The translations under genes were made by a program, and so were the position numbers. A stretch of 64,000 nt of DNA, taken from NCBI RefSeq assembly GCF_033115175.1, contig NC_084827.1:178127401-178191400 (forward strand). The letters are read 5' to 3'. Origin of the DNA: Lepus europaeus. Its lineage: Eukaryota; Chordata; Mammalia; Lagomorpha; Leporidae. A model generated the notes under the pieces. The model was not told where the DNA came from and made no database searches. It saw only the letters and a program-made list of their open reading frames with translations. Shown here one piece after another: positions 27,411 through 59,142 of the stretch (within the stretch, counting starts at the first letter, position 1; the number at the start of each line of letters is the position of its first letter).

Positions 27411-28277
27411 ATGGCCACAGGGTGCCAGGACCCACGTCGCCTGTCCGTCCTGGGCCTGCTGCTGTGTGTCCTCAGCCCCAGCGTGGCTCATGCCTCCAAG
27501 CTGCTATTGGTCCCCATTGATGGCAGCCACTGGCTGAGCATGCTTGGGCTCATCCAGCAGCTCCAGCAGAGGGGACATGAAATAGTGGTCTTAGCGCCTG
27601 ACGCCTCGGTCTTCATAAAAGAGGGAGCATCTTACACCTTGAGGAAGTACCCCGTGCCATTCCAAAGGAAGGAAGTGGAGGAAAGCTTTATCGCACTCGG
27701 CCGTAATGTTTTTGAGAACGCTCCTTTCCTGCAGCGTGTGGTGACAACATACAAGAAAGTCAAAAAGGACTCCGCTCTGCTGCTCTCTGGCTGCTCCCAC
27801 TTACTGCACAACAAGGATGTCATGGCCTCCCTGGCGGAAGCCGGCTTTGATGCCGTGTTGACTGACCCTTTCCTTCCTTGTGGCTCCATTGTGGCCCGCT
27901 ACCTGGCTCTGCCCGCCGTGTACTTCTTGAATGCACTGCCGTGCAGCATGGACTCCAAGGCTACCCAGTGCCCCAGCCCTCTGTCCTACGTGCCCAGGAT
28001 CATGACCGTTAGCTCGGATCACATGAGCTTCCTGCAGCGCGTGAAGAACGCGCTTGTGGCCTTGATGGAAAACTTCCTGTGTGATGTGGTTTATTCCCCG
28101 TATGCGTCGCTTGCCTCGGAAGTCCTCCAGAGAGACATGAGTGTCCAGGAGCTTATGAGCTCTGCGTCTGTCTGGCTGTTGAGAGGTGACTTCGTGAAGG
28201 ACTACCCCAGGCCCATCATGCCCAACATGGTTTTTGTTGGGGGGATCAACTGCCTCCACAGAAACCCACTGTCGCCG
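27411..28277 (+). CDS. UGT1A1: UGT1A1 variable first exon (bilirubin UGT), intact
   Basis: This exon encodes the 289-residue N-terminal half of UGT1A1, which glucuronidates bilirubin, oestradiol and many drugs in the ER lumen. A signal peptide covers residues 1-28. LLLVPIDGSHWLSM carries the catalytic His at residue 40, and the partner Asp is in VLTDPFLPCG at residue 152. The UGT1A1-type features [57 protein letters not shown] and GGINCLHRNPLS are all present and separate it from UGT1A3/4/5 and UGT1A6. The start context ACCATGG is strong. The exon ends at 28277 in CCG with donor GTGTGT and joins exon 2 in phase 0, giving 534 residues in total. The last codon is Pro (CCG) where other UGT1A exons have Gln (CAG), so the donor lacks the usual AG before GT. 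Confidence 0.96.
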
Positions 28278-31200
28278 GTGTGTATGTGAGTTAGCCTCTG
28301 TTCTTGCAAGCGCTTTGTATGGGTGAGCTTGCTGAGGTAGTTTAAAATGACTGTGAATTTCTGTCTTGCAAGTCTTCTGGGCCTGAGCTCCTCTGTCTCG
28401 GCATCGTCTTCTGGCTTATTTCTTTGTAGCCTCAGATACAAAGCATATTTTGATATTTTGCTGTGTGCTCCAGTGGATAGAGATCAGTTAGATGCAACAG
28501 GCATTATCTGCTGAGCACAGAAATGTGCGGCGGGCACCTTGATTGGGTCAGCTAGGCAATATTTGAGGTTGATGAAATAGTTGTTTGATATCTATAGATT
28601 CTGGCAAGGAAAGTTGTTTTGATGGTCCTGGGTACGGCTCCAGTTTCCAGATCAGGGGTGGGGAATGTCTGGCTGCAAAATCATTTGATCTGGCCCTGCC
28701 AAGGCAACTGCAGGCAGGCCTTGAAATTCAGTGATCTAGCAGAGTGATCTTTAAGTTGACAGTGTTGTACCGCTCGGAATGATGTTATTAATATCCTAAT
28801 GGCTTCTTAGAAAAAGGTCCCCCACCCTGCTTGAGATGCTCTAGTGGGTGGCTAGATCCTGCAGTTCTTTCCTTCTAATGAGTGAATTGCCTAACTCTCG
28901 GGTTGTGACACTGGGCAGAGTCACTTTCCCAGAAATGATAATATGCTAATTTCTCCCTCCCCAGATTTCGAAATGAACAAAACGTGGCATTCACACCCCC
29001 GTCTAAATCTCCTTGAATTTACTAGAAAATGAGCAGGAGAGGCATCTTCAGATGGTAGGGGAAGGACTCTCTGGAGGGGGACGTTTCAGTGGTCTGTCAT
29101 TCATTTATCCTGCGGGTATTTGCCGAGGACCTCCCAGTAGCACAGGCATTTCCCAGCTGCTGAATCTGGCTCCTACCTAGGGGCTGTTCTCGCCCGTGGA
29201 GACCACTGGGCCTTATTTCTGTTGCAGTCCTAGCCGTGTTCTAAATGATTGTGTGATTGGGGAGGAGAGACTCTGGGCACCAGCAAGAGCACCAAGTCAG
29301 GAATCAGACGCTGTGCTGATGCCTGTGCTCCACTGCCTTGTGACCAGATTCCCCTTCTGTGGGCTTTGATCCTTCATTTGTAATGTGAAGTAGGATCCGA
29401 TGGCCCTTCAGAGATCTGCCTCTGTGGCTCTGGACCTCACAGGCTGCTGCACAAGTGTGTGTTGCATGGGGTGGTCTGGTTAAGAAAGAAGGTGCTGGTT
29501 TCCTAAAAGTAAGATGAGAAAACCCAACAGTACAGAAAACCATTAATGATTCTCTTTCAAGTGGAGGGCAAGGAATGGGTGAGCTACCACCAAGCTGATG
29601 AACACCTCTCAAAACAAAGGAAAGAGATGGGGTCAACTTGTCCACATTGGAGAAGTATTCAAGGGGAGTATTTTTGACACCATCATGAAGGATCCAAGAG
29701 AAAGTCGTCGTGTTTCACATTCACTCTGGAGCTTAAGGCATTGGAGATGTGCATGCCTAATGGACATTCTAATCAAAATGGGAGAACTCATCTATAAATC
29801 TGGTGGGCATTCCCAGTTATGCTGGCCTTCTGCCTATTCCTGGAACATTTCAGAATCTTTCCCAATTCAGAACCCTTGAGCATGCTGTTCCCCGAGCTAG
29901 TTAGATGTCCGCCTTCTCATGTTCCAGGACAGCTTGAATGCCGCTTCCTCGCAGAGCTGCCCTCTCTAACCCAGCACTCTCACTTCCCTTTGTAGCACAT
30001 TCAGTGCTTCAGTCAGCGGGTCAAGACCATTGTCCACTGACCGTGTCCTGCACTCCCTGGGCCACGGTCAGGGCAGCTGTGGTTTTGTGTCAGTCACATC
30101 TGCTGTGTGCTGCACTCTCAACACCTGCACTGGGTCTACAATGCTTGGAGTCCCTTAAATGTTAGCACCCGAGGCAGTGGGCACTCAGCAAATAGTGGCT
30201 AAATGAAGGAATACAAACAGAGAAAAGAATATGAAGTTGGGACTGGTTCCTGGAGAGTTAGTAAGCCCCAACGACTCTTTAGTCTCCCCCCCCCCCCCAC
30301 ACACACACAGCATTTTTATTGTTTGGTTTACAAAATTTGGTGATAATGTAGGTCCCTATTGCTCACTTATTAATACATCATGAATATTGCTCCTGTTCAA
30401 AATATGAGTCAAATTTTTTAAGTGTTAAATAGCCTGTATGGCGTTTATGTACCACAGGTTTTTCTGCTGGCCATCTGATCTAGATCCCTCTGAAACACAC
30501 TGAGATTTCTGTTCCAGGACTTTGTCATTGTGACTTCGAAGATCATAGCGAAGATTAGTATGTTAGAGTTTTCTTCATATTTGTTGTTTCTTACTGCTTT
30601 TTTCTGGTTCTACCTTATTCTTGTTTACAGTTTTTTGGTCACTACTGTGAATGTGTCATTTCCCCCATCTCTGTCTCTAGCTGGTTTTCACTATTTTTGT
30701 TTCTAGCCAGTTCCTCAGTATTCAACTATTTCACCAGAATGTTGATTTCCATATTTTTTAAAAATTCACATGCAGTCATTTGCCGGTAAACAAATGTTGG
30801 CTCCTTCAGTGGTAAACTCCATGCTGAATGTCAGTGTTGCTTTCACTGGAACTTCTAGAAACCATTGCGTAACTCTGGTGGTAGCAAGGGTTCTTTGAAT
30901 AGAAATAATTTTTATGTTGTCATTTTGTGTTTGCCTTTTTTTTTTTTTTTTTTGGCAAGTAGCCTTTATGTATTTAAGATGTTTGCGGGAGAGACTGCTG
31001 AACTTTATGTAATGATAATACCCCCTACCCCACACATTTGTCCAAATGGTAAATTTTATTGACTACATGGTGATTGCCATCTTGTTTAGTGCAAGCAGGC
31101 TTATGTGTGAAAATATCTTTGTAAATTGCATCTGATAGTAGCCCTCTTTGTCTTGTTTAATGTTTTAATCAAGAATTCTACTTTTTTTTATATTGACATC

Positions 31201-36651: not shown

Positions 36652-36933
36652 GTATGTTGGCTGGATCTGGCATGCAGGTCAGACCAAGCTTAAGACACTG
36701 GGCTGGGCACAGCGGTTGTAAAGGGTGGTTTAGCCTGAAAACAGCATGGCCACTGCCTCCCCCAGGCCTTTCTGTCTGGTGGGGGTGTCTCCGCCCACAC
36801 GTTCTTTTGTGAACTTTTGCAATGGTTCCATAAGGACAGCACAGAGTCCTTGCAGTGCTTTCAAAACCTACACTGTGTCAGACTGGGAAACCGTGACGTA
36901 ACCGCTGGCATCCCTTCCTGCCTTGCTTCTCAG

Positions 36934-37153
36934 GTCACCCGAAGACGCGTGCCTTCATCACGCACTCTGGCTCCCACGGTATTTATGAAGGAATATGCAA
37001 CGGCGTTCCCATGGTGATGCTGCCCTTGTTTGGCGACCAGATGGACAACGCGAAGCGCATAGAGACCCGTGGGGCTGGGGTGACCCTGAACGTCCTTGAA
37101 ATGACCTCTGATGACCTAGCGAATGCCCTAAAAACAGTCATCAATGACAAAAG
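36934..37153 (+). CDS. UGT1A: UGT1A constant exon 4
   Basis: A 220 nt exon encoding [19 protein letters not shown], then [19 protein letters not shown] and [10 protein letters not shown]. This is the core of the UGT signature; the GDQ motif and the preceding THSGSHG are the sugar-nucleotide contacts known in the family. The acceptor is 'ccttgcttctcag' and the donor GTAAGA. It ends with two bases of a Ser codon, completed by exon 5. Confidence 0.97.
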
Positions 37154-37784
37154 GTAAGAGATATGTAAAGGGCAATGCTCCCTGTATTTTGGCCATGATT
37201 TTAATGATAAATATTCTAGGGTAAAAACAAATACATAAAAGTCTAGATTTATAAATAAGATCACATGGGTGATGTTATTATTCACTTTATGAAAGGATCC
37301 TTTAGTTCCTATGTTATTATCAGAATAGCTATATATTATCAGAATAATATCTACATATTATCAGAATGTATTTAAAATGTTATTTCCCATGATTGACTTA
37401 AAAATGTAATTTATAAAAATAATGTCACCATGATGGACATAAGGTTCTGCAAAGAGAGAAGCACTCAACTACAAGGAGCATAGAGTTCACAGGAGAAGAA
37501 CACAAAGGGGCTTAGGAGTGCAGCTTTTCCCAGGACTGGAACTCGTAAGAACTTTGTCCATGGGAGTCTATAAATGGGGCAGTCATGTGATATCACAAAG
37601 GCTTAGAGTAAGAGCAAAGACAAATTTGTTCAGATGTGGCCCTGAAAACTGTTTAAAGACAGCCGTCATCAGAGCACATTGTCCTTGCGTAAAACGTATC
37701 ACACTGCTGTCAAACTCACCGTGAACAGGCTCATCCAAACCTGAGAAGAACTGATGGCCGTTGGGGCATTTCGTCCAACAACAG

Positions 37785-39860
37785 TGTGTGTGTGCGCATA
37801 CATTTGTGCATGCCGTGTGTGTGTGCATCTGTGTGTGTCCATGCATGTGTGTGTGTACATTGTGTGGACACATAGTGGTGTGCCCATGCATGTGTGTGTG
37901 CATCTGTGTGTGTCCATGCATGGTGTGTGTCCATTGTGTGGACACATAGTGGTGAGCCCATGCATGGTGTGTGTCCATTGTGTGGACACATAGTATGTGT
38001 GCCCATGCGTGTGTGTGTGCATCTGTGTGTGTCCATGCATGGTGTGTGTCCATTGTGTGGACACATAGTGGTGTGCCCATGCGTGTGTGTGTGCATCTGT
38101 GTGTGTCCATGCATGGTGTGTGTCCATTGTGTGGACACATAGTATGTGTGCCCATGCATGTGTGTGTGCATCTGTGTGTGTCCATGCATGGTGTGTGTCC
38201 ATTGTGTGGACACATAGTGTGTGTGCCCATGCATGTGTGTGTGCATCTGTGTGTGTCCATGCATGGTGTGTGTCCATTGTGTGGACACATAGTGGTGAGC
38301 CCATGCATGGTGTGTGTACATTGTGTGGACACATAGTGGTGTGCCCATGCATGTGTGTGTGCATCTGTGTGTGTCCATGCATGGTGTGTGTCCATTGTGT
38401 GGACACATAGTGTGTGTGCCCATGCGTGTGTGTGCATCTGTGTGTGTCCATGCATGGTGTGTGTCCATTGTGTGGACACATAGTATGTGTGCCCATGCAT
38501 GTGTGTGTGCATATGTGTGTGTCCATGCATGGTGTGTGTCCATTGTGTGGACACATAGTGGTGAGCCCATGCATGTGTGTGTGCATCTGTGTGTGTCCAT
38601 GCATGGTGTGTGTCCATTGTGTGGACACATAGTGTGTGTGCCCATGCATGTGTGTGTGCATCTGTGTGTGTCCATGCATGGTGTGTGTCCATTGTGTGGA
38701 CACATAGTGGTGAGCCCATGCGTGTGTGTGTGCATCTGTGTGTGTCCATGCATGGTGTGTGTCCATTGTGTGGACACATAGTGGTGTGCCCATGCGTGTG
38801 TGTGTGCATCTGTGTGTGTCCATGCATGGTGTGTGTCCATTGTGTGGACACATAGTGGTGTGCCCATGCGTGTGTGTGTGCATCTGTGTGTGTCCATGCA
38901 TGGTGTGTGTCCATTGTGTGGACACATAGTATGTGTGCCCATGCATGTGTGTGTGCATCTGTGTGTGTCCATGCATGGTGTGTGTCCATTGTGTGGACAC
39001 ATAGTGTGTGTGCCCATGCATGTGTGTGTGCATCTGTGTGTGTCCATGCATGGTGTGTGTCCATTGTGTGGACACATAGTGGTGAGCCCATGCATGGTGT
39101 GTGTACATTGTGTGGACACATAGTGGTGTGCCCATGCATGTGTGTGTGCATCTGTGTGTGTCCATGCATGGTGTGTGTCCATTGTGTGGACACATAGTGT
39201 GTGTGCCCATGCATGTGTGTGCATCTGTGTGTGTCCATGCATGGTGTGTGTCCATTGTGTGGACACATAGTATGTGTGCCCATGCATGTGTGTGTGCATC
39301 TGTGTGTGTCCATGCATGGTGTGTGTCCATTGTGTGGACACATAGTGGTGAGCCCATGCATGTGTGTGTGCATCTGTGTGTGTCCATGCATGGTGTGTGT
39401 ACATTGTGTGGACACATAGTGTGTGTGCCCATGCGTGTGTGTGTGCATCTGTGTGTGTCCATGCATGGTGTGTGTCCATTGTGTGGACACATAGTGGTGA
39501 GCCCATGCATGTGTGTGTGCATCTGTGTGTGTCCATGCATGGTGTGTGTCCATTGTGTGGACACATAGTGTGTGTGCCCATGCGTGTGTGTGTGCATCTG
39601 TGTGTGTCCATGCATGGTGTGTGTCCATTGTGTGGACACATAGTGGTGTGCCCATGCGTGTGTGTGTGCATCTGTGTGTGTCCATGCATGGTGTGTGTCC
39701 ATTGTGTGGACACATAGTGTGTGTGCCCATGCGTGTGTGTGTGCATCTGTGTGTGTCCATGCATGGTGTGTGTACATTGTGTGGACACATAGTGGTGTGC
39801 CCATGCATGTGTGTGTGCATCTGTGTGTGTCCATGCACTTTTGTGCATGCATGTGTGTGC
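37785..39860. repeat. 74-75 bp minisatellite in UGT1A intron 4
   Basis: A tandem array of about 2.08 kb with 28 copies of the tract GGACACATAG. The unit is GTGTGTGTGCATCTGTGTGT, then GTCCATGCATGGTGTGTGTC, then CATTGTGTGGACACATAGTG and a GTGTGCCCATGCAT-like end. Variants differ at the 'tagtggtg', 'tagtatgtg', 'tagtgtgtg' and 'gtgagccc' positions, and some units are shortened. Each unit contains the palindrome CCATGCATGG and an inverted repeat TGTGTCCA-TTGTG-TGGACACA. A block of at least 695 bp from about 38087 recurs 787 bp later at 38874, so the array has a second, longer period. Long ORFs in all three minus-strand frames are a by-product of the stop-free repeat. Confidence 0.97.
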
Positions 39861-39899
39861 ATTTATCCATGTGTGTTTGTGCTTACGAGATTGCCAGGT

Positions 39900-40260
39900 G
39901 CATTGTCTGAGTCCATTTCGTTTGCTGTAACAGAAGAGCGGAGACTGGTTGATTTATAAATAGAGATTTATTAGCCAAACTGCTCTAGAGGCCGCAGTCC
40001 AAGGTTGGGGCTGTGTCTGTGAGGGCCTCGTGCTGCCTCCTCACACGGCAGAAAGGTAGGAGGGCAGGCAGCTGTGTGTGGAAGAGTAAGACGTGAGGGT
40101 CAGCTCGCTTCACAGCCACCGTGCTCATGGGGACCAGTCCAGGCCCGGGGCAGACGTCATCCCTCTTAGTGACTCAGTCCCCTCCACACCTCTCATTGCC
40201 ACTGCACTGGGGATCAAGATCAATGTGTGAGCTGTGGGGACACATTCACACCGTAGCACC
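39900..40260 (-). mobile_element. MaLR-like LTR remnant, antisense
   Basis: 'gagtccatttcgtttgctgtaacagaagag' and 'agactggttgatttataaatagagatttatt' resemble the reverse complement of a THE1/MST/MLT1 LTR 3' end. It starts directly after the minisatellite. Confidence 0.55.
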
Positions 40261-42997: not shown

Positions 42998-43301
42998 TTT
43001 GGCTTCTAGTTTCTTTTGTTTTTTCCTTCTTGTATATGTTACCTTCCCTTTTCTTTCCTTTTTCTCTCTCTCTCTCCTTTTCCCTCTCCCTCCCCCACCT
43101 CAGCAGTCATTAAATTCATATAAATTCTATTTCTTCTCTTTGGAGATACAGAACATTTATTGTGTGTGTGTGTGTTTTTTCTGGTTGTGATAGAAACAGT
43201 TTGGAAAAATCTGGTAGCATTTCTAACTGACAGCAAGCATCCAGGGAGAGTGGATCGTTGCCATGGTGTTCGGACGCTAATGCAACCATCTCTGTGTTCA
43301 G

Positions 43302-43599
43302 CTACAAGGAAAACATCATGCGCCTCTCCAGCCTGCACAAGGACCGCCCCGTGGAGCCGCTGGACCTGGCCGTGTTCTGGGTAGAGTTTGTGATGAGGCA
43401 CAAGGGGGCGCCGCACCTGCGGCCCGCCGCCCACGACCTCACCTGGTACCAGTACCACTCCCTGGACGTGATCGGCTTCCTCCTGGCCATCGTGCTGACC
43501 GTGGCCTTCGTCACCTTTAGATGCTGTGCCTTTGCCTGGGGGAAGTGCTTCGGGAAGAAGGGGCGGGTGAAGAAAGCACACAAGTCCAAGGTGCACTGA
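43302..43599 (+). CDS. UGT1A: UGT1A constant exon 5 (terminal coding exon)
   Basis: The last coding exon, 298 nt, starts [20 protein letters not shown] after the split Ser codon and ends at TGA 43597-43599. It encodes [20 protein letters not shown] and the single membrane anchor [17 protein letters not shown]. The lysine-rich cytosolic tail ends KKAHKSKVH, the ER-retention type of tail. The acceptor is 'tctgtgttcag'. With exons 2-4 it completes the 245-residue constant half, the expected family length. Confidence 0.97.
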
Positions 43600-56659: not shown

Positions 56660-56803
56660 GTAAAGCTGGGGGTCATCAAGGCCCTGAAGCCCATGCTGAA
56701 CCTGCTCCTGCCCAATGATGACCTGCGGGAACAGGTGTACGACTACATCCCCCTGCTGCTGGCCGAGTACCAGGGCAGCCTGGAGGCGCTCTTCATCACA
56801 CAG
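56660..56803 (+). CDS. MROH2A: MROH2A coding exon 7
   Basis: A 144 nt phase-0 exon encoding VKLGVIKALKPMLNLLLPND, then LREQVYDYIPLLLAEYQGSL and EALFITQ. The acceptor is 'gttcctgtggcag' and the donor GTGAGG. Confidence 0.95.
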
Positions 56804-57529
56804 GTGAGGCCCGGGGGGCTCTGGAAACCTGGGGCCCCCAAGCGTCCCGGGGCGGGGGCCGCCTGCACCCACAGGTATCTTAGTGCTATGTGAGCAGATC
56901 CAATGCTTGTGCCCTGTGAGGGGGCCATCCCGGACGGCAACAGCATTGGGGACCACAGGGAGGGCCTTTGTGTCAGTCTCTGGGGGGTGGGGGCTGCTCC
57001 AACCCATGACCACCGCAGGCCGGGCTTGCCACAGCAGACATTCAGCCTCACAACTCCAAAGTCAAGGTGCCCCAGGGCCGTGCTCCCCCTGGAGCCTGGG
57101 GGACGTCCCCTCTGCTGGCTTGTGCCGGCCACAGGTGCTCCCGCCGCTGCCCCTGTTGCCCAGGGCTGTCCCCCTCAGTCTTCCTCACTTCTTACTAGGA
57201 CACCAGTCACTAGATTGAACGTCTGCCCAAAGTCCAGTGGGATGGCGCCTCGAGCTCCGTAACCGATTACAGATCTATGCAGAGACCCTGTTTCAAAATG
57301 AGGTCGCCTTCCGAGGTCCTGGGTGGACACCAGAGGCTGGCACCAGGCTTGTGCACCGAGCTGGTGCAGGGTTCCGGGTGGGGGCGTGGCCTGGGTTGAT
57401 GGGATTAGCGGTCAGTGGCGATGTGCTAAGGGGGTCTCAGCTATAAAAGCAAGGAGCAGAAACGAGTGTGACACACTTAGAGGTCCACCTGTGCATCCTT
57501 TTTATTTTAATAGAAATATGATTTATTTG

Positions 57530-57850
57530 TAAGGCCAGCTCTGTGGCGTAATGGGTAAAACCACTGCCTGTGGCTCCGGTTTCCCATATGGGTACTGGTT
57601 CCAGTCTCAGCTGCCCTGCTTCCAATCCAGCTCCCTGCTGTGGCCTGGGAAAAGCAGTGAAAGATGGTCCAAGTCCTTGGGCCCCTGCACCATGTGGGAG
57701 ACCCAGAGGAAGCTCCCGGTTCCTGGCTTCAGATTGGCCCAGCTACGGCCATTGCAGCCATTTTTGGAGTGAACCAGCAGATGGAAGACCTCTCTCTCTG
57801 TTTCTCCCTATCTCTGTCTGTAACTCTACCTCTCAAATAAATAAATCTTT
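57530..57850 (+). mobile_element. C-repeat SINE, sense
   Basis: 'aggccagctctgtggcgtaatgggt' to 'caaataaataaatctttta', followed by a (TA)n tract at 57850-57900. Confidence 0.92.
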
Positions 57851-57899
57851 TATATATATATATATAAAATCTTTTATATATATATAATATATATATATA

Positions 57900-58140
57900 A
57901 TTGAGAGGCAGGGAGACAGAGCTCCCACCTGCTGGTGCACTCTGCCTACAACAGCTTGAGGTGGGGGTGGGGGCTGAACCCTGGACTGGGAGCTCAATCC
58001 AGGGCTCCCACGTGGGTGGAGCCATCCCTGCTGCCTCCCAGGGCCCAGTTAGTGGGAAACTGGAACTAGGGATGGAGCCCGTTCCTCTGATGTGAGACGC
58101 TGGCGTCCTCACCAACAAGGCGAACACCTGCCCTGCCTGT
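57900..58140 (-). mobile_element. Old C-repeat SINE, antisense
   Basis: 'attgagaggcagggagacagagctcccacctgctgg' to 'aaggcgaacacctgccctg', a diverged antisense SINE. Confidence 0.8.
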
Positions 58141-58204
58141 CATTCCTGCTGAAGAGTGGGATTCGTCTCCAGGAGAATAGGAGAGCGAGCTGAAAAGGCC
58201 TTGA

Positions 58205-58790
58205 GCGCCAGGCTCAGTGGTGCTGACTCAGCAGATCTGGGGGCATGGGTATCACCTGGGGCTGGTGGACAAGCAGCGCTGACTCAGCAGATCTGGGGGC
58301 ATGGGTATCACCTGGGGCTGGTGGACAAGCAGCGCTGACTCAGCAGATCTGGGTGTGGGCATCACCAGAGGCTGGTGGTCAAGCAGTGCTGACTCGGCAG
58401 ATTTGGGGGCTGGGAGCCACCTGGGGCTGGTGGACAAACAGCGCTGACTCAGCAGATTTGGGGGCTGGGAGCCACCTGGGGCTGGTGGTCAAGCAGTGCT
58501 GACTCAGCAGATCTGGGCGTGGGCATCACCAGAGGCTGGTGGACAAGCAGTGCTGACTCGGCAGATCTGGGGGCATGGGTATCACCTGGGGCTGGTGGAC
58601 AAGCAGCACTGACTCAGCAGATTTGGGGGCTGGGAGCCACCTGGGGCTGGTGGTCAAGCAGTGCTGACTCAGCAGATCTGGGCGTGGGCATCACCTGGGG
58701 CTGGTGGACAAGCAGCGCTGACTCAGCAGATTTGGGGGCTGGGAGCCACCTGGGGCTGGTGGACAAGCAGCGCCGACTCAGCAGGTCTGG
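58205..58790. repeat. 56 bp tandem array with Maf/ARE-type sites
   Basis: About 10-11 tandem units of 53-56 bp, with the pattern GCTGACTCAGCAGATCTGGG, then GGCATGGGTATCACCTGGGG, then CTGGTGGACAAGCAGC. Every unit carries a version of TGCTGACTCAGCA, the palindromic TPA-type Maf recognition element that also contains AP-1 (TGACTCA) and the ARE core (TGACNNNGC). Exact 13-mers are at 58221-58233, 58497-58509 and 58662-58674. Variants start at 58277, 58333, 58387, 58442, 58551, 58607, 58716 and 58771. The array lies in the MROH2A intron just upstream of exon 8. Binding has not been shown; the match to the motif is direct. Confidence 0.93.
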
Positions 58791-58887
58791 GGCAGGACCA
58801 GAAAAGCCACCCTTAGGGGGTGCAGGTCTAGAGTCTGACCCTGAATCAGTAGACGGCGACCTGCCTCCATTTGCCTACCTGTCGCAG

Positions 58888-58980
58888 GTCCTGAGGCAGA
58901 TCCTGGAGATGTCCGTCTCCACCAATACCCCCATCCCCCAGATGCAGCTGCACCCCCTCTTCACAGAGCTTCATGTGCAG
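58888..58980 (+). CDS. MROH2A: MROH2A coding exon 8
   Basis: A 93 nt phase-0 exon encoding VLRQILEMSVSTNTPIPQMQ, then LHPLFTELHVQ. The acceptor is 'cctacctgtcgcag' and the donor GTGGGG. It starts about 100 bp after the Maf/ARE-containing tandem array. Confidence 0.94.
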
Positions 58981-59142
58981 GTGGGGCCCGCAATCTCAGG
59001 GTGGGATCAGCAGGGGCTGGGCTTTGGGAGGGGGCCAGGGCCTGGTTCACTTGTGTGCCTGCTGCTGGCCAGGGGAGCTGTGGTGCCCAGGCGGCCTGAA
59101 GCCCTGTGAGCCCCGCCATGCTCCCTGCACGCCCCTCCCCAG

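What the first reader, a model, noticed from the sequence alone, without database searches (positions are those of the whole stretch)
58205..58790. Array of 11 Maf/ARE-type sites in an MROH2A intron near the UGT1A locus
Each tandem unit carries a version of TGCTGACTCAGCA, the TPA-type Maf recognition element that includes AP-1 and the ARE core TGACNNNGC. Three copies match all 13 positions, and the others differ by one or two bases. Small Maf, NRF2 and BACH1 bind such sites, and UGT1A genes are known NRF2 targets. The array is about 15 kb downstream of the last UGT1A exon and about 100 bp before MROH2A exon 8. A tandem array of this site could act as an inducible enhancer or a sink for these factors. 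It could equally be neutral satellite drift.
Basis: partly seen in the sequence, partly recalled or inferred. Interest (0 to 1): 0.72.

Follow-up and report, generated by a model that had tools for sequence, protein, structure and literature searches.

The report
Intronic minisatellite carrying Maf/AP-1-like sites
A short DNA unit repeated about ten times inside an intron carries a copied binding-site-like sequence in its units; the sequence alone suggests an ordinary repeat array rather than a stress-response switch for the neighbouring detoxification genes.

Summary
About 10 copies of a 54-56 bp unit (58220-58792) carry 11 copies of a T-MARE-like 13-mer: 3 exact, 6 with one mismatch, 2 with two. 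The array lies in MROH2A intron 7, 95 bp before exon 8 and 14.6 kb past the UGT1A stop codon. The sites are copies by descent, partly in 165-bp trimers, not 11 independent events. The 13-mer varies as often as the rest of the unit (3 of 13 against 11 of 43 columns, p = 0.58). Against this, the most conserved 13-column window overlaps the motif, and without CpG-type columns the motif looks quieter (p = 0.075). No copy fits the NRF2-type element [A/G]TGA[G/C]TCAGC; 7 of 11 have the MARE core, which favours small-Maf homodimers, and 8 of 11 an AP-1 core. Best reading: an ordinary intronic minisatellite. A weak or repressed AP-1/small-Maf cluster, like the tandem repeats restricted by MORC3, is not excluded. 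Orthologues and chromatin data could not be reached.

The parts
58220..58792 (+). minisatellite array, about 10.4 copies of a 54-56 bp unit, with a 165-bp trimer higher-order repeat
   Evidence: TRF rows of 109, 165 and 274 bp; spacing; units three apart most alike
58221..58233 (+). copy 1, TGCTGACTCAGCA, exact T-MARE
58277..58289 (+). copy 2, CGCTGACTCAGCA, 1 mismatch
58333..58345 (+). copy 3, CGCTGACTCAGCA, 1 mismatch
58387..58399 (+). copy 4, TGCTGACTCGGCA, 1 mismatch, AP-1 core lost
58442..58454 (+). copy 5, CGCTGACTCAGCA, 1 mismatch
58497..58509 (+). copy 6, exact T-MARE
58551..58563 (+). copy 7, TGCTGACTCGGCA, 1 mismatch, AP-1 core lost
58607..58619 (+). copy 8, CACTGACTCAGCA, 2 mismatches, AP-1 core kept
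58662..58674 (+). copy 9, exact T-MARE
58716..58728 (+). copy 10, CGCTGACTCAGCA, 1 mismatch
58771..58783 (+). copy 11 (edge unit), CGCCGACTCAGCA, 2 mismatches, TGAC core lost
56804..58887 (+). MROH2A intron 7, which holds the array
   Evidence: splice sites; Pfam match runs across the exon 7/8 junction
56660..56803 (+). MROH2A exon 7
58888..58980 (+). MROH2A exon 8, with 95 bp between the array and its start

Best explanation
It is an ordinary intronic minisatellite. A 55-bp GC-rich unit that happened to contain a (T/C)GCTGACTCAGCA palindrome was duplicated in tandem, later partly as 165-bp trimers, by slippage or unequal exchange (inferred). Each duplication copied the palindrome. The exact T-MARE copies (3 of 11) differ from the commonest version, CGCTGACTCAGCA (4 of 11), by one CpG/TpG step (direction inferred). 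The likeliest consequence for the cell is none or a weak one: occasional small-Maf homodimer or AP-1 binding if the chromatin is open, and no dedicated NRF2-driven control of UGT1A. The array structure and motif copies are shown; neutrality and the mutation direction are inferred.
For: Units three apart are most alike (mean differences by distance 1 to 5: 8.12, 7.57, 4.33, 7.60, 5.00), and motif variants partly follow that pattern, so the sites are copies by descent. On plain counts the 13-mer is not better conserved than the rest: 3 of 13 against 11 of 43 variable columns, Fisher p = 0.58; mean diversity 0.090 against 0.124; 28 of 56 circular 13-column windows (its own included) have equal or lower diversity. 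All 3 variable motif columns in the nine full units are CpG-type, against 0 of 11 elsewhere; the further motif change, in edge unit 11, is CTG/CCG. The longest fully invariant run in the unit is GGCTGGTGG, which holds the Chi octamer, 10 copies in the array, an equally perfect match presumably without meaning in a mammal. 0 of 11 copies are CsMBE. Look-elsewhere: with 228,486 reference tandem repeats in human (PMC8096271 passages), taken for scale as 55-bp units of uniform composition, about 14 would hold the motif with at most one mismatch and 0.4 an exact one.
Against: The single most conserved 13-column window, CTGACTCAGCAGA (one variable column), overlaps 11 of the 13 motif positions. With CpG-type columns removed, the motif has 0 of 10 variable columns against 11 of 43 (p = 0.075); the longest quiet run (19 columns, CAGCGCTGACTCAGCAGAT) is centred on the motif (P = 0.096 for a run that long, P = 0.038 for this window being free). 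These are weak, uncorrected, post hoc, and probably inflated by linked columns, but they lean towards constraint. The motif is uncommon in a single unit (29 of 20,000 shuffles), and 8 of 11 copies keep a complete AP-1 core.
Confidence: 0.72

Rival explanations
1. A homotypic AP-1/small-Maf cluster in a tandem repeat that is bound and acts as a weak enhancer, or is held closed like the MORC3-restricted tandem repeats.
For: MORC3-restricted minisatellites (20-192 bp units) carry homotypic clusters of SPI-, AP-1- or SP/KLF-like motifs (the AP-1 and SP/KLF clusters as predicted by a model), and one, in a FOCAD intron, is an IFNB1 enhancer whose unit also shows a MAF motif in the paper's model attribution (PMC13373173). 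Few repeat units gave mild enhancer activity without repression. Other intronic VNTRs are said to contain enhancers (PMC8096271 passage). Here 8 of 11 copies have TGACTCA and 7 of 11 GCTGACTCAGC; weak quietness of the motif.
Against: MORC3 repression appeared only above 15 SPI motifs, and genes responded at only one repeat beside the IFNB1 one; here there are 11 sites. Plain conservation test negative. No chromatin data.
Confidence: 0.19
2. An NRF2/small-Maf-inducible enhancer of UGT1A.
For: UGT1A1 is an NRF2 target through AREs in its promoter region (PMC5395973 passages); TGACNNNGC is present in 10 of 11 copies; CNC-sMaf heterodimers and small-Maf homodimers often bind both CsMBE and MARE (PMC9756947 passages).
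Against: 0 of 11 copies fit [A/G]TGA[G/C]TCAGC or RTGACNNNGC on either strand. The paper states that Nrf2-MafG has weaker affinity for MARE than the small-Maf homodimer, which represses. The UGT1A1 AREs described are promoter-side; this lies 14.6 kb past the last coding exon.
Confidence: 0.04
3. A repeat that alters splicing of MROH2A exon 8 through RNA or G-quadruplex structure, as TERT VNTR6-1 does for TERT.
For: It ends 95 bp before exon 8; an intronic G-rich VNTR alters TERT splicing (PMC11830802 passages).
Against: No four-run G-quadruplex pattern in the array with loops up to 12 on either strand; RNA folding ordinary (z = -1.21, 15 of 100 shuffles at least as stable).
Confidence: 0.05

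Closest known systems
Intronic minisatellites / VNTRs of mammals (PMC8096271, passages)
   Same: GC-rich unit of tens of bp, about 10 copies, unit variants and higher-order duplication, inside a gene
   Different: Unit happens to contain a full T-MARE-like palindrome; polymorphism not tested
MORC3-restricted tandem repeats, e.g. the IFNB1-MRE in FOCAD (PMC13373173, abstract, passages, sections 7, 11, 13, 15)
   Same: Minisatellite with a homotypic TF motif cluster, AP-1-like among the predicted motif types, in an intron near an inducible gene family
   Different: 11 motifs here against 45 PU.1 sites in the IFNB1-MRE; no binding, accessibility or cross-species evidence
MARE / CsMBE elements bound by small Maf and CNC proteins (PMC9756947, passages)
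   Same: GC on both sides of a TGACTCA core in 7 of 11 copies, that is a MARE core
   Different: No copy is a CsMBE (NRF2-type) element; that paper prints the MARE ends as A...T, where the finding uses T...A

Membership tests
Minisatellite / VNTR | Head-to-tail copies of a unit of about 7-100 bp | tested here: met
   TRF rows at 58220-58792; motif spacing 54-56 bp
Minisatellite / VNTR | Copy number polymorphism between individuals | not testable with these tools
   One assembly only
MARE (small-Maf homodimer site) | GC on both sides of TGA(G/C)TCA | tested here: met
   GCTGA[CG]TCAGC in 7 of 11 copies; definition
CsMBE / ARE (NRF2-sMaf site) | [A/G]TGA[G/C]TCAGC (its last T not required here) or RTGACNNNGC (recalled) | tested here: not met
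   0 of 11 copies on either strand; the looser TGACNNNGC is met by 10 of 11
AP-1 (TRE) cluster | TGA(G/C)TCA cores | tested here: met
   8 of 11 copies
MORC3-restricted tandem repeat | Large homotypic cluster (repression seen above 15 motifs, measured for SPI only) | tested here: not met
   11 motifs; threshold
MORC3-restricted tandem repeat | MORC3 binding and gain of accessibility on its loss | not testable with these tools
   No chromatin data
Conserved regulatory array | Motif better conserved than the rest of the unit | tested here: inconclusive
   p = 0.58 plain, but the quietest 13-column window overlaps the motif; p = 0.075 without CpG-type columns
Conserved regulatory array | Same array or motif cluster at the orthologous intron in hare, pika and others | not testable with these tools
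   The collections named in the tool descriptions are of viruses, phages, plasmids, bacteria, archaea and metagenomes; the genome search 'own' did not complete

The most novel reading that the evidence does not exclude
The array is a homotypic MARE/AP-1 tandem-repeat element: small-Maf homodimers or BACH1 hold it closed at rest, and AP-1 or large Maf factors turn it into a synergistic enhancer of UGT1A or MROH2A, as PU.1 does at the IFNB1-MRE, with strength set by copy number. The quiet 19-bp core centred on the motif would then reflect selection.
Probability: 0.07. Interest if true: 0.6.

Novelty: new member of a known kind. Interest (0 to 1): 0.2.

Why it matters
If the array were bound and active, it would be another case of a copy-number-tunable tandem-repeat enhancer, next to a gene cluster central to drug and bilirubin metabolism. 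If not, which is likelier, it shows how tandem duplication makes one chance motif look like a cluster of eleven.

Tried and rejected
Orthologue or relative search: the pattern scan of viral contigs gave 0 hits, as expected for mammalian DNA; genome contigs, phages, plasmids and E. coli genomes were not scanned. The genome search on the window's own assembly was sent four times as the same request and never answered. A species check with three recalled C SINE heads gave 1, 0 and 1 hits and settled nothing.

Rejected: array as a coding exon (each of the three + frames has a stop in the array before 58393; the protein match runs across the exon 7/8 junction); G-quadruplex array; unusual RNA structure; a dispersed source of the unit in the window (three 13-bp matches outside the array, E = 0.12 each).

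Literature listings seen (rows listed of papers found): 15 of 41; 15 of 838; 10 of 269; 10 of 299; 10 of 136; 10 of 15; 10 of 106. None of the titles and abstract beginnings listed describes this array or a MARE-bearing minisatellite; the rows not listed were not seen.

Full report
What is there. Tandem Repeats Finder reports an array at 58220-58792, with periods of 109, 165 and 274 bp, that is 2, 3 and 5 units. A mismatch search finds the 13-mer TGCTGACTCAGCA eleven times on the + strand inside it, 3 exact, 6 with one mismatch and 2 with two, spaced 54, 55 or 56 bp. Allowing either centre base, no further match with up to two mismatches exists in the 64-kb window.

Gene context. Three UGT1A exon stretches match Pfam UDPGT (27411-28286, E = 7.7e-85; 36897-37154, E = 1.7e-40; 43231-43596, E = 2.1e-54, to the profile's last position). 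The last coding exon ends at 43599 with its stop, 14.6 kb before the array. Downstream exons with AG/GT signals at or near their ends join into a protein whose exons 3-10 match HEAT_MROH2B_1st (E = 7.7e-123) and HEAT_Maestro_2 (E = 1.7e-46). The choice of MROH2A rather than its paralogue rests on position after UGT1A, which is recalled. The Maestro_2 match (residues 199-323 to profile 1-126) runs across the exon 7/8 junction (residue 230 by my count), so the array is intronic: intron 7 is 56804-58887 and exon 8 starts at 58888, with 95 bp between the array and the exon. I counted 8 exons from the first that I could place, near 48.69 kb; a further 5' exon would shift the numbers.

Why eleven sites are not eleven events. 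Mean differences between full units 1, 2, 3, 4 and 5 apart are 8.12, 7.57, 4.33, 7.60 and 5.00 columns. So the array grew partly by copying blocks of three. Motif variants follow the blocks in part: units 4 and 7 share TGCTGACTCGGCA, and units 6 and 9 the exact T-MARE, which unit 1 has too, while unit 3 has CGCTGACTCAGCA. The relevant chance is that of one unit holding the motif: 29 of 20,000 dinucleotide shuffles of a 55-bp unit have it with at most one mismatch, 2 exactly. With 228,486 curated tandem repeats in the human genome (PMC8096271 passages), taken for scale as 55-bp units of uniform composition, about 14 arrays would carry it with at most one mismatch and 0.4 an exact copy. Motifs of other factors could have been noticed instead. 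The array also holds 10 exact Chi octamers GCTGGTGG, inside the unit's longest invariant run, a match presumably of no meaning in a mammal.

Is the motif constrained? On the nine full units (2-10 of 11; the two edge units left out because they are partial), 3 of 13 motif columns and 11 of 43 others vary (Fisher one-sided p = 0.58), mean diversity is 0.090 against 0.124, and 28 of 56 circular 13-column windows, its own included, have equal or lower diversity. All 3 variable motif columns are CpG-type changes; none of the other 11 is. In edge unit 11 the further motif change is CTG/CCG, again of that type. Two results lean the other way. The most conserved 13-column window of the unit, CTGACTCAGCAGA with one variable column, overlaps 11 of 13 motif positions. 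Setting CpG-type columns aside gives 0 of 10 against 11 of 43 (p = 0.075); the longest quiet run is 19 columns centred on the motif (P = 0.096), and the chance for this window to be free is 0.038. This is post hoc and uncorrected, and several of the 11 other columns change together as unit classes, so I count constraint as inconclusive.

Which factor could bind? CsMBEs read [A/G]TGA[G/C]TCAGCT and MAREs have GC on both sides of TGA[G/C]TCA. Small-Maf homodimers prefer MAREs and repress. Both kinds of dimer often bind both elements, but Nrf2-MafG has weaker affinity for MARE than the small-Maf homodimer (PMC9756947 passages). Here 0 of 11 copies are CsMBE (tested without its last T) or RTGACNNNGC on either strand, 7 of 11 have the MARE core and 8 of 11 the AP-1 core. 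So the NRF2-inducible reading is the least supported by the sites themselves. The UGT1A1 AREs described in PMC5395973 (passages) lie in its promoter region.

Closest precedent for function. MORC3 restricts accessibility at minisatellites with 20-192 bp units and homotypic clusters of SPI-, AP-1- or SP/KLF-like motifs, the latter two as predicted by a model. One, in a FOCAD intron, is an IFNB1 enhancer with 45 PU.1 sites, and its unit also shows a MAF motif in the paper's model attribution. Repression appeared above 15 SPI motifs; smaller numbers gave mild activity without effective repression; genes responded near only one further repeat (PMC13373173: abstract, outline, passages and sections 7, 11, 13 and 15). 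The present array has the right architecture but 11 motifs and no binding data. A splicing role, as for TERT VNTR6-1 (PMC11830802 passages), is not favoured: no four-run G-quadruplex pattern with loops up to 12 and ordinary RNA folding energy (z = -1.21; 15 of 100 shuffles at least as stable).

Verdict. A real, correctly described repeat; most likely an ordinary intronic minisatellite whose founding unit contained a MARE-like palindrome. The decisive comparisons (hare, pika, chromatin data) could not be made here, and the species itself was not established.

Noticed in passing
37816-39837: A 74-bp minisatellite (about 25 copies) in the UGT1A intron before the last exon, with 23 exact copies of a perfect inverted repeat TGTGTCCA-TTGTG-TGGACACA. 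It is a larger palindromic repeat than the one reported.
   Followed up: partly
37583-39953, - strand: The same 74-bp array yields three overlapping open frames of 727-759 aa, rich in His and Thr; most likely a by-product of the repeat.
   Followed up: no
58393-59109, + strand: One frame is open from the fourth unit of the array through the rest of the intron and MROH2A exon 8 in the exon's own frame (238 aa). Stops lie upstream in the array.
   Followed up: partly
58259-58792: Units 2 to 11 contain the exact E. coli Chi octamer GCTGGTGG (10 in the array, 14 in the window on both strands).
   Followed up: partly
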